A DNA stretch of 48,891 bases from Candidatus Dadabacteria bacterium (lineage in GTDB: Bacteria > Desulfobacterota_D > UBA1144 > Nemesobacterales > Nemesobacteraceae). The stretch's first letter is position 1; each line of letters begins with the position of its first letter. Below are positions 12,928-15,298 of the stretch, one piece after another. The notes beneath the pieces are model-generated. The model made no database searches. It worked only from the letters and a program-made list of their open reading frames with translations, and was not told where the DNA came from. The position numbers and the translations under genes are program-made. The DNA lies in the NCBI GenBank assembly GCA_028823955.1, contig JAPPFE010000032.1, forward strand, positions 1-48,891, given 5' to 3'.

Positions 12928-13073
12928 TTCCCCGGGAAGTTTTCTTCCGAACGAGATATAAATCCGGTATACTAAACCCTTAGTATTTTACTGTAGGCCT
13001 ACCGCTATAATTCATGATAGTGAACCGCTGTCGAAGGAGAGCGAGTAGCTTCCCAGATCCGGTCGCGTGCTAG

Positions 13074-13131
13074 GAAAAACGGACCAAGAAACTTCAGATG
13101 AAAAGACAAATTTCTTTGGGGCCGTCTTTTT
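13074..13131 (+). terminator. Rho-independent terminator after the PpiD-like gene
   Basis: acgg-acc-aagaaa (13079-13091) pairs imperfectly with tttctt-gg-ccgt (13111-13125) and is followed by ctttttc. An A-run precedes the stem, so it may work both ways. It isolates the following retron from upstream transcription. Confidence 0.55.
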
Positions 13132-13254
13132 CCTGAACTTTCGCTGAACTCTTTAAGCCGATTTTTTATCATGGAGTTCCAGGATTATCGAAATCATTTT
13201 TCTGCGGTCACCGCCCCCTTTCATAAGATTTTTTATTTTCTCTGAGAAAAAAAA

Positions 13255-13282
13255 TTGACTTTTAGCAAATATCGTGTAGCAT
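13255..13282 (+). promoter_or_regulatory. Putative promoter of the retron
   Basis: ttgact (13255-13260) and tagcat (13277-13282) are 16 bp apart in AT-rich DNA, giving a start near 13289 at the beginning of the structured leader. A 7-bp inverted repeat lies right after it. Confidence 0.5.
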
Positions 13283-13288
13283 TTATTC

Positions 13289-13620
13289 TTAACTGAACTG
13301 ATAGTTCAGACGTTCTTTGACAACACCTCCAAGATTGGACTTGTTAAGGGCCAAGCTTTTTAGCTTGGCCGATGCTTATGCATCTTAACAGAAGCAGATG
13401 GCGAGGGCAGAGGGATCTTCATCTTTGAAGCTTGTAGAAGATAGGTTCTCTCCCGGTCGTGTTATACCGGCGTTTAGGCGTTGAGCCCTTGAGACCTGTG
13501 GAAGTATAGTTCGCATGATAGTATGCGACTGAAATAAGAGGGATTATGGGTTTCCGCTGTGTTTTTTCCGGTCCGATCGCATGGCGACTGGGCGAAAGCA
13601 CCAGAAAAAAATTCGCTCAA
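13289..13620 (+). ncRNA. Presumed retron msr-msd RNA (limits approximate)
   Basis: This 330-bp stretch has no gene but many hairpins, which is what a retron RT needs as template and primer. At 13342-13390 a stem tgttaa/ttaaca encloses two hairpins: ggccaagct-tttt-agcttggcc (13349-13370, 9 bp perfect) and gatgc-ttat-gcatc (13371-13384). This three-way shape resembles an msr. A longer stem aggt(t)ctc/gagacct (13443-13450 with 13491-13497) enclosing ccggt...accgg (13453-13470) could be the msd. Further hairpins are at 13508-13530 and 13562-13610 (ttttttccgg with ccagaaaaaa). I could not identify the a1/a2 pair or branching guanosine with confidence. Confidence 0.6.
13293..13309. promoter_or_regulatory. 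Inverted repeat at the retron transcription start
   Basis: ctgaact-gat-agttcag is a perfect 7-3-7 inverted repeat just downstream of the -10 box. It is a good candidate operator for the XRE-type HTH protein encoded in the same operon, or a 5' hairpin of the RNA. Confidence 0.4.
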
Positions 13621-13632
13621 GGAGGTAATAAA

Positions 13633-13875
13633 ATGCTTTTAGAGAAGCAGTTGTTAAAGAAGACGCTCAATACGCTCATAGAGCTAAAAGCGTCTATACG
13701 TGACACAGCGGACCCAGGCGTTATAGTCCGACTGGATGAGGTTATAGACCAACTCCAGTCTGTTATAGAAGGCAGAAAGCCTGAAGACCCAGACAAGATC
13801 TTGAATGGTCTTGGCAAGTTTTTGAAGATGCTGCCAAGCATCGAGGCTTTGATGAGTTTCCTGTCTGATGATTAA
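13633..13875 (+). CDS. Retron-associated 80-aa protein of unknown function
   Basis: I do not recognise this protein. It starts at ATG 13633 behind a strong ribosome site (ggaggt, spacing 6); a longer frame upstream would run through the structured RNA and is unlikely. The sequence (MLLEKQLLKKTLNTLIELK... to ...MLPSIEALMSFLSDD) is predicted by eye to be mostly amphipathic helix, with an acidic end, no cysteines, no signal peptide and no transmembrane segment. It lies between the presumed msr-msd and the HTH gene, so it belongs to the retron operon. It may be the effector, an adaptor or an antitoxin-like partner. This is inference from position only. Confidence 0.75.
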   Translation: MLLEKQLLKKTLNTLIELKASIRDTADPGVIVRLDEVIDQLQSVIEGRKPEDPDKILNGLGKFLKMLPSIEALMSFLSDD

Positions 13876-13909
13876 CGCAATAATCCTTTTTATTTTTTAC
13901 AGCCTGATC

Positions 13910-14200
13910 ATGAACCTTGGCGCAACGATAAAAGAGTGTCGGAGTTTGCGTAAGATGACGCAAACTCAACTGGCCGATGCGGCCGGTCTGTCTGTTTCCC
14001 ATCTTTGCCTTCTCGAAAAAAACGAGCGTCAGCCCAGTATTTCAACTATAGAATCAATAGCGCGAACTCTGGAAATACCCTTGAGCGTCCTTATTTTCCT
14101 CGCTGCGGAAAAAGAAGAAGTCCCCGAGTTAACAGCAAGACACATTGAAGACCTGTCCAAACACATAATAGGTTTGATGAAATTACATGCCCAGAAATAG
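13910..14200 (+). CDS. XRE-type helix-turn-helix protein of the retron operon
   Basis: The 96-residue product opens MNLGATIKECRSLRKMTQTQLADAAGLSVSHLCLLEKNERQPS, a standard Cro/C1-type HTH. A C-terminal helical tail of about 35 residues follows (EVPELTARHIEDLSKHIIGLMKL). An in-frame ATG at 13868 overlaps the end of the 80-aa gene (atgattaa) and would add a hydrophobic 14-residue leader. I prefer 13910 because the HTH normally begins near the N-terminus, though neither start has a clear ribosome site. It overlaps the RT gene by 14 bp, so the two are translated together. Small HTH partners are known for one group of retrons. It could regulate the operon or act as effector. Confidence 0.8.
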   Translation: MNLGATIKECRSLRKMTQTQLADAAGLSVSHLCLLEKNERQPSISTIESIARTLEIPLSVLIFLAAEKEEVPELTARHIEDLSKHIIGLMKLHAQK

Positions 14201-15149
14201 ACATCCCGTTATAAACATTTCCCCTATCGCTAAGGTTTCATCTCTGGCTTCATTACTTTCGATCAAGGAATCCGATTTGCTGTATATTGCCGCAAATGTG
14301 GATCGGTTTCACAGGCTGGGGAAAGAGCTTAAAAAAAGAAACGGGGAACCACGGCATACCCATGACGCGGAGCAACGGCTGAAAATCATACATGAGAGGA
14401 TTAACAACCGAATACTTAAAAAAGTCGATTACCCATACTATTTACAGGGTGGAATAGCAGACAAAAAACGGCCTCGAGGCTGTCGTACTAACGCCATTAT
14501 TCATTCCAGAAAGAAGTCGATTATCACTGAGGATATAAAGGATTTTTTCCCCTGTACAAGCAAAAGAATTGTTAAAGGAATTTGGCAATACTGCTTCCGA
14601 TTTCATCCCGAAATAGCCGATATCCTGACCCGTCTGACCATCTACCAGAACCAACTCCCCCAAGGCTGGAAAACCAGTTCATACTTGGCGAACTTAGTAT
14701 TTTGGGACAAAGAACCGGATTTGGTGTCTTTACTTGAGCAACGGGGTTATTCCTACAGCCGTTATATGGACGACATTACCGTGTCAAGCGGGCATTATAT
14801 AAACAATCACCAAAAGAACTACATAATATCAAAAGTTTACGAAATGCTTTTTTCCAAAGGGTTCGCACCAAAGCGCAGCAAGCATGAAATAGTCAGTCAG
14901 AGTCAGCGAATGGATGTTACGGGCTTGGTGGTAAACAGGAAAAATCCGACGGTCTCAAAGAGCAAACGCAGGGGAGTGCGAGTAGGCGTATTCAAACTGG
15001 AGGAACTGCCAATAAATAATCGTTCAGATGCTGATTATTGTGAGTGCTGGGAGCATTTGTCTGGATTGGTAAGTTATATAAGCACTTACCATCCTAAAGA
15101 AGGTAAAAAGCTACGTGCTCGGTTACGTAATATAAAGCCGAATAGGTAG
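14187..15149 (+). CDS. ret: Retron reverse transcriptase
   Basis: The 320-residue protein has the size of a stand-alone retron RT and all hallmark motifs in order. The retron-specific NAxxH in region X is N102-A-I-I-H106. Catalytic Asp motif A is DIKDFF, 116-121. QGWKTSSYLANL is at 159-170. The active-site YMDD box is at 193-196 (YSRYMDDITVS). Retron-specific VTG in region Y is at 244-246 (MDVTGLVVN). No fused C-terminal domain is present. Such enzymes copy the msd part of their own RNA into a branched RNA-DNA hybrid, now known to serve in phage defence. Codon use and low GC differ from flanking genes, indicating acquisition. The gene ends inside a 21-bp repeat shared with the MITE-like element at 24.2 kb. 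Confidence 0.95.
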   Translation: MPRNRHPVINISPIAKVSSLASLLSIKESDLLYIAANVDRFHRLGKELKKRNGEPRHTHDAEQRLKIIHERINNRILKKVDYPYYLQGGIADKKRPRGCRTNAIIHSRKKSIITEDIKDFFPCTSKRIVKGIWQYCFRFHPEIADILTRLTIYQNQLPQGWKTSSYLANLVFWDKEPDLVSLLEQRGYSYSRYMDDITVSSGHYINNHQKNYIISKVYEMLFSKGFAPKRSKHEIVSQSQRMDVTGLVVNRKNPTVSKSKRRGVRVGVFKLEELPINNRSDADYCECWEHLSGLVSYISTYHPKEGKKLRARLRNIKPNR

Positions 15150-15163
15150 TATCTGCCAGAAGA
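15143..15163. repeat. Single copy of a 21-bp repeat shared with the MITE at 24.2 kb
   Basis: taggtagtatctgccagaaga matches tagatagtgtctgccggaaga (24155-24175) at 18 of 21 positions. It overlaps the RT stop codon. It may be the right border of the acquired retron segment or a leftover element end. Confidence 0.4.
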
Positions 15164-15298
15164 CTCTGTTTTCCTCCGAATTATTTTAGGGCATAATCAA
15201 CAGCAACTACCTTTCCTGCTATCTGTTTATGAATCAACATACTGCGTTCCTTTGTTTTTAACCTAGTACACAGCAATTAACTGTTCCCGACCGGGAAG

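What the first reader, a model, noticed from the sequence alone, without database searches (positions are those of the whole stretch)
13289..13620. Unusual fold of the presumed msr-msd RNA
The leader has a three-way junction (closing stem 13342-13390 with two perfect hairpins), a long bulged stem (13443-13497) with an inner hairpin, and two further hairpins. I could not find the usual a1/a2 pairing that flanks an msr-msd. acctcc (13325-13330) is complementary to the ribosome site ggaggt (13621-13626) of the 80-aa gene. If that pairing forms, the RNA ends would both be held together and block translation of the accessory gene, linking RNA state to effector expression.
Basis: partly seen in the sequence, partly recalled or inferred. 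Interest (0 to 1): 0.65.

Follow-up and report, generated by a model that had tools for sequence, protein, structure and literature searches.

The report
Retron RNA that cages its own genes
A bacterial retron (a reverse-transcriptase defence element) carries a leader RNA whose ends clamp the start and the far side of the small gene behind it, and the same clamps plus a conserved duplicated tag recur in about 36 related retrons, which suggests that copying the RNA into DNA switches the element's own proteins on.

Summary
The locus is a type VI retron: SP (13633-13875), HTH (13868 or 13910-14200) and RT (14187-15149) all match the PADLOC type VI models. The leader does fold unusually well (z = -4.3). 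Across 36 non-redundant type VI loci the segment after the 5' hairpin covaries with the SP ribosome site (P1; 0/20,000 permutations reach it). It is the best candidate for the 'missing' a1/a2. (i) A helix P2 just inside P1. (ii) P4, the strongest pairing: the leader core pairs with the SP-HTH gap across the whole SP gene (window 13531-13547 with 13880-13896; permutation z = 12.9). (iii) A locus-specific 7-10 nt direct repeat about 75 nt apart, with no covarying complement in the transcript (z = 13.7). (iv) A 5' hairpin followed by an rrn-boxA-like motif. The three-way-junction closing stem and the 13443-13497 stem are not supported outside the genus or are untested. Best model: the leader is the type VI msr-msd, its end helix hides the SP start, and reverse transcription or disturbance of the fold releases translation. 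RT-DNA, translation control and template jumping are inferred, not shown.

The parts
13255..13282 (+). promoter-like -35 TTGACT and -10 TAGCAT; predicted transcript start about 13289
   Evidence: consensus match only; a similar TTGAC...-10 element sits just upstream of the 5' hairpin in most relatives
13293..13309 (+). H0, 5' hairpin, 7 bp with 3-nt loop (boxB-like position)
   Evidence: 7-bp hairpin with 3-4 nt loop of varying sequence in nearly all relatives (loci were in part selected on it)
13312..13322 (+). boxA-like motif GTTCTTTGACA
   Evidence: exact gamma consensus GYTCTTTAANA (PMC5725501) in 14 of 36 leaders and relaxed GYTCTTTRA in about 22; rrn leaders of the same genus carry TGATCTTTGAAAA
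13325..13330 (+). P1 5' strand (a1-like), pairs with the SP ribosome site 13621-13626
13333..13340 (+). P2 5' strand GATTGGAC, pairs with 13571-13578; G13333 is a candidate branching G (inference)
13349..13370 (+). H1 hairpin, 9 bp (msr-like)
   Evidence: two-sided compensatory change in L008
13371..13384 (+). H2 hairpin, 5 bp (msr-like)
13511..13531 (+). direct repeat copy 1: TCGCATG[atagtat]GCGACTG; the first part folds as hairpin H3 (13511-13516/13523-13528)
13531..13547 (+). P4 5' strand (leader core), pairs with 13880-13896
   Evidence: A13546-U13881 becomes G-C in L008
13562..13572 (+). P3 5' strand, outer stem of the 3' domain, pairs with 13600-13610
13571..13578 (+). P2 3' strand GTCCGATC
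13577..13590 (+). direct repeat copy 2: TCGCATGGCGACTG
13588..13604 (+). H4 terminal hairpin with GAAA tetraloop
13621..13626 (+). SP ribosome site GGAGGT = P1 3' strand (a2-like)
13633..13875 (+). SP_VI, 80-aa small protein, presumed effector
   Evidence: PDLC02971, 1.1e-11; AlphaFold four helices, pLDDT 81
13880..13896 (+). P4 3' strand in the SP-HTH gap
13868..14200 (+). HTH_VI, Cro/CI-type regulator (start 13868 or 13910)
   Evidence: (2.1e-24)
14187..15149 (+). RT_VI reverse transcriptase; NAxxH, YMDD and VTG motifs present
   Evidence: (1e-73)

Best explanation
The leader 13289-13633 is the non-coding RNA (msr-msd) of a type VI retron, transcribed as the 5' part of the ncRNA-SP-HTH-RT operon. 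Shown by covariation: its ends are joined by P1, in which an a1-like segment right after the 5' hairpin pairs with the SP ribosome site. P2 stacks just inside, the 3' domain carries P3/H4, and the leader core pairs (P4) with the gap between SP and HTH. The RNA therefore bridges both sides of the SP gene. Inferred: P1 plays the a1/a2 role, placing a branching G (about 13333) next to the template end just upstream of the ribosome site; while the RNA is folded SP is not translated and, through P4, HTH-RT translation is damped. Copying the 3' domain into DNA, with loss of the RNA template, or disturbing the fold during infection opens the ribosome site and releases SP. The 5' hairpin with boxA would recruit Nus factors, as in rRNA leaders, so that the long untranslated leader is transcribed through and its distant strands find each other.
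For: Type VI assignment of all three genes. Leader folds at z = -4.3. 36 non-redundant leaders: P1 z = 7.8, P2 7.5, P3 5.8, P4 12.9 against permuted partners, 0/20,000 each; four control region pairs z between -1.8 and 1.9. Window-by-window maps, made without choosing coordinates, peak at P1, at P3/H4/H1/H2 and, within the gap map, at P4. Two-sided changes between the window and L008 in H1 and P4, and pairing kept in P1 and P2. G-U excess at P4 flanks over permuted partners (p = 0.006) points to RNA pairing. New loci: P4 clear in 3 of 3.
Against: No transcript, RT-DNA, probing or translation data. P1 is short (6 bp in the window) and absent or different in one held-out locus (L097). P2 is not convincing in held-out L118. 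P4 crosses P1/P2 and P3 touches P2, so the full set may be alternative states and not one fold. P4 ends 10-30 nt upstream of the HTH start, so a block of HTH translation is not obvious. The SP is only assumed to be the effector.
Confidence: 0.6

Rival explanations
1. Template-jumping retron: the paired direct repeats let the growing cDNA leave copy 1 and re-anneal to copy 2, so that the RT makes tandem copies of the about 60-85 nt core, as DRT2 does with its ACA motifs; translation control is secondary.
For: The repeat is locus-specific yet identical in both copies (longest shared word 8.1 vs 5.3 nt for permuted partners, z = 13.7; map peak at -120 x -48). No part of the transcript carries a covarying complement (nine regions, z between -1.7 and 1.6), so the cDNA is the obvious molecule complementary to both. 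DRT2 precedent with matching ACA-1/ACA-2 motifs (PMC11100668).
Against: No cDNA data; known retrons make monomeric msDNA. The repeats might instead mark the RNA-DNA overlap at the msDNA end, or bind a trans partner. In the window copy 1 is split by 7 nt.
Confidence: 0.3
2. The long-range helices are RNA processing sites (for example RNase III cutting P4 and freeing the ncRNA from the mRNA), and pairing of the ribosome site is a by-product.
For: P4 is a 9-17 bp duplex next to the SP stop codon in nearly all loci; in rRNA operons the leader-trailer helix is an RNase III site (PMC10250234).
Against: P1 covaries at the ribosome site itself; P4 is shorter than a typical RNase III substrate.
Confidence: 0.2
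3. The leader is an ordinary structured 5' UTR with HTH autoregulation, and the msr-msd lies elsewhere.
For: CACTGnCAGTG-like palindrome beside the -35 in most relatives, a typical Cro/CI operator.
Against: No other untranslated room in the element apart from 134 nt downstream of the RT and about 310 nt upstream of the promoter, which I did not test as an ncRNA; the leader is the only part where a conserved RNA fold was found.
Confidence: 0.07
4. P4 and the repeats are DNA-level repeats (binding or recombination sites), not RNA pairing.
For: Inverted and direct repeats also suit DNA-binding proteins.
Against: Repeat sequence changes freely between loci while the two copies match, unlike a protein site; G-U pairs exceed permuted expectation at P4 flanks (p = 0.006) and P1 (p = 0.03), a modest effect.
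Confidence: 0.06

Closest known systems
Type VI retrons (PADLOC RT_VI/HTH_VI/SP_VI; classification of Mestre et al. 2020, paper not held here)
   Same: All three proteins and the gene order SP-HTH-RT
   Different: The RNA architecture (ribosome-site a2, P4 across the SP gene, paired direct repeats, boxA-like motif) was not found described in the literature I could search; Rfam 15 has no hit
Canonical retron msr-msd such as Ec86/Eco1 (from general knowledge)
   Same: End helix joining both ends of the ncRNA, hairpins after a presumed branching G, RT with NAxxH and VTG motifs
   Different: A hairpin and a boxA-like motif precede a1; a2 overlaps the ribosome site of the accessory gene; a pairing crosses that gene; direct repeats flank the presumed template core
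DRT2 (KpnDRT2) ncRNA
   Same: Short identical motifs at both ends of the presumed template
   Different: RT belongs to retrons, not DRT2; repeats are 7-10 nt and locus-specific; no never-ending ORF was looked for
rRNA operon leader boxB-boxA-boxC with leader-trailer helix
   Same: 5' hairpin, boxA, then a strand that pairs with a distant downstream segment, with two hairpins following
   Different: Downstream segments are a ribosome site and a gap between genes, not rRNA; Nus binding is untested
suhB 5' UTR boxA
   Same: boxA in the leader of a protein gene
   Different: There boxA lies 6 nt from the ribosome site and acts directly; here it lies about 300 nt upstream

Membership tests
Type VI retron | RT of the type VI clade | tested here: met
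   RT_VI best, 246 bits, 1e-73 (RT_V next, 229 bits)
Type VI retron | HTH_VI protein encoded directly upstream of the RT | tested here: met
   2.1e-24; gene order
Type VI retron | SP_VI small protein | tested here: met
   PDLC02971 1.1e-11
Retron RT | YxDD plus retron NAxxH and VTG motifs | tested here: met
   read in the translation: NAIIH, YMDD, VTG
Retron | structured ncRNA next to the RT operon with a1/a2-type end helix | tested here: met
   that P1 acts as a1/a2 is inference
Retron | branching G and 2'-5' linked msDNA | not testable with these tools
   G13333 proposed from position only
Retron | anti-phage defence | not testable with these tools
   no experiment
DRT2-like template jumping | identical motifs at both ends of the template | tested here: met
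DRT2-like template jumping | concatemeric cDNA | not testable with these tools
   no sequencing of RT-DNA
DRT2 | RT of the DRT2 family | tested here: not met
   Drt2 26.9 bits against cut-off 390
rrn-type antitermination site | boxA consensus | tested here: inconclusive
   window GTTCTTTGACA differs by one base from GYTCTTTAANA; 14/36 relatives exact; factor binding untested

The most novel reading that the evidence does not exclude
Type VI retrons use one RNA as template, switch and sensor: the RT jumps between locus-specific direct repeats and makes tandem-repeat cDNA, and consumption of the template opens P1 and P4, so that reverse transcription itself turns on translation of the small effector and of HTH-RT, with boxA-recruited Nus factors chaperoning the long-range fold.
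Probability: 0.2. Interest if true: 0.92.

Novelty: new variant of a known kind. Interest (0 to 1): 0.72.

Why it matters
Type VI is a retron type for which I found no worked-out ncRNA in the papers I could search. The covarying map gives a concrete secondary structure, a predicted template and a predicted a1/a2. It makes two open questions testable with small mutants: whether retron RNA directly gates translation of the effector, and whether some retrons make repetitive cDNA by template jumping. It would also extend boxA-type leaders to retrons.

Tried and rejected
Rfam scan of the window: nothing. First protein-pattern scan of genome contigs with the window RT alone: no relatives; the alignment A1 worked. 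RNAalifold on a MAFFT alignment of the 3' 140 nt: only the terminal hairpin, because a sequence alignment of such divergent leaders is poor; replaced by permutation tests of duplex energy. Complement of the direct repeat inside the transcript: none. G-U versus A-C count at P4 flanks (73 vs 15) looked decisive but is mostly base composition; against permuted partners it is only a modest effect. SP fold: four helices, no PDB match below E = 0.001. Held-out set was small: only three usable new loci, because most new RT_VI hits lack SP_VI or are other types. Own genome has no 16S for a boxA comparison; sister genomes were used instead. Papers on the type VI classification and the retron census are not held, so prior description of this ncRNA cannot be excluded. 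No covariance model was built, because pseudoknots cannot be represented and the pairing strands lie up to about 350 nt apart.

Full report
What the locus is. Three genes follow the leader: SP (80 aa), a Cro/CI-type HTH protein and a 320-aa reverse transcriptase. PADLOC's type VI retron models match all three (SP_VI 1.1e-11, HTH_VI 2.1e-24, RT_VI 1e-73). The RT carries the retron NAxxH and VTG motifs and YMDD (read). A same-genus genome (G011, locus L008) has the same element at the same place, 96% identical over 2.9 kb. More distant relatives with the order SP-HTH-RT occur in Psychrobacter, Alteromonas and Pseudomonas plasmids and in many, mostly proteobacterial, genomes. The transcript probably starts near 13289 (-35 TTGACT 13255, -10 TAGCAT 13277-13282).

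The observation. The leader folds at -119.1 kcal/mol against -97.5 for shuffles (z = -4.26). H1 and H2 are perfect hairpins. Against L008, H1 shows a two-sided compensatory change, H2's loop-closing bases change in concert, and P1 and P2 stay paired through G-U exchanges. The closing stem of the three-way junction acquires a mismatch in L008, and I saw no counterpart in distant members. The 13443-13497 stem lies in a region that does not align across the type, so it stays untested.

Covariation. I took 36 non-redundant leaders with an SP start and asked, for windows of the leader, whether a locus's own two segments pair better than segments shuffled among loci. The maps scan all window pairs without choosing coordinates. 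The 5'-3' map peaks at z = -7.8 for the segment 16-32 nt after the 5' hairpin against the last 16 nt before the SP start (P1). A second peak (z about -5) lies just inside it (P2). The local maps show the 5' hairpin (selected for in part), H1, H2, the terminal hairpin H4 and its outer stem P3. With contiguous-helix scores P1 reaches z = 7.8, P2 7.5 and P3 5.8, none reached in 20,000 permutations; control region pairs give -1.8 to 1.9. So the ribosome site of the SP gene is one strand of the helix that holds the ends of this RNA together, in the type and not only in this window. These windows were refined after looking at examples, the loci are related, and each statistic is for the set, not for a single locus.

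P4. The gap between SP and HTH carries a segment complementary to the leader core, on the far side of the SP gene. Most loci have a helix of 9 bp or more there; in the window it is 17 bp with three G-U pairs (13531-13547 with 13880-13896). It covaries more strongly than anything else (own 24.5, permuted 16.8, z = 12.9); the core against the inside of the SP or HTH gene shows nothing. Between the window and L008 one A-U becomes G-C (sequences). A distant type VI subgroup with another small protein shows the same kind of helix (L114, TGTTTAAGGGT/ACCCTTAAACA), and it holds in three held-out loci. P4 crosses P1 and P2, so it is either a pseudoknot or an alternative state. The excess of G-U at its flanks (p = 0.006) is modest support for pairing in RNA.

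Direct repeats. Most leaders hold one 7-10 nt word twice, about 75 nt apart (range 52-88 in the automated search), the second copy just before the terminal hairpin. The word differs between loci (TCGACTGG, ACGGGGCTTC, TGACGGCG, TGGAGGGA and others) but the two copies of a locus agree (z = 13.7, map peak -120 x -48). In the window copy 2 is TCGCATGGCGACTG (13577-13590) and copy 1 the same word split by ATAGTAT (13511-13531). No region of the transcript has a covarying complement. A pair of copies that change together must share a partner, and the obvious partner is the cDNA that the RT makes from them. DRT2 uses matching motifs at both template ends to jump and make concatemers (PMC11100668); that is the precedent, not proof.

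boxA. Directly after the 5' hairpin most leaders carry GYTCTTTRA. The gamma-proteobacterial boxA consensus GYTCTTTAANA (PMC5725501) is matched exactly in 14 of 36 leaders. The window has GTTCTTTGACA, and rRNA leaders of the same genus have TGATCTTTGAAAA. In rRNA operons boxB-boxA-boxC is followed by a long-range leader-trailer helix, and tethering of boxA is thought to help that helix form (PMC10250234). The order here is the same. Nus binding is untested, and no paper in the searched library joined the terms retron and boxA in its top hits.

Mechanism. Shown: a type VI retron; a conserved leader RNA; P1 at the ribosome site; P4 across the SP gene; paired repeats. Inferred: P1 is the functional a1/a2, the branching G is near 13333, the template is the 3' domain, SP is the effector and is silent while P1 stands, and reverse transcription or infection opens it. 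Because the RNA template is normally removed after copying in retrons (general knowledge), the same act that makes the DNA would destroy both clamps.

Limits. No RT-DNA, no RNA ends, no probing. The original type VI classification paper and the retron census are not in the library, so part of this ncRNA may already have been predicted.

Noticed in passing
window 12942-15283: The retron is a discrete 2.34-kb insertion. In the five closest same-genus genomes aligned, 12934/12941 is joined directly to 15284 (homology also starts at about 15284 in seven more), at a terminator-like palindrome TTCCCGACCGGGAA of which a version stands at both ends; no integrase or transposase inside.
   Followed up: partly
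window 13325-13396 and 13537-14150 versus L008: Divergence from the sister locus is concentrated in the pairing segments, SP (8 synonymous, 20 nonsynonymous changes) and HTH (19 and 7), while RT (6 and 11 over 960 nt) and the leader middle 13397-13536 are nearly identical; fast evolution or recombination.
   Followed up: partly
upstream of the 5' hairpin in most relatives, e.g. L012, L023, L040: Palindrome CACTGnCAGTG (or TTGACTnnnAGTCAA) beside or over the -35, a likely operator of the HTH protein; weak in the window.
   Followed up: no
L055 and L057 leaders, variable region: Arrays of short tandem units (GTTCGTCAGGCAGACA about 9 copies; GGCTAACA about 9 copies) in the leader between H2 and repeat 1.
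   Followed up: no
L114, L115, L117: A distant type VI subgroup has a different small hydrophobic protein (54-92 aa) in place of SP_VI; L114 shows an 11-bp P4-like helix across that gene.
   Followed up: partly
G000:C49:33200-33820 (L001): The genome holds a second reverse transcriptase (RVT_1 128 bits, 486-aa frame) of another kind.
   Followed up: no
window 13868-13875: The longer HTH reading frame starts in the SP stop (ATGATTAA), and no ribosome site precedes the 13910 start, so HTH translation may depend on translation of SP.
   Followed up: no
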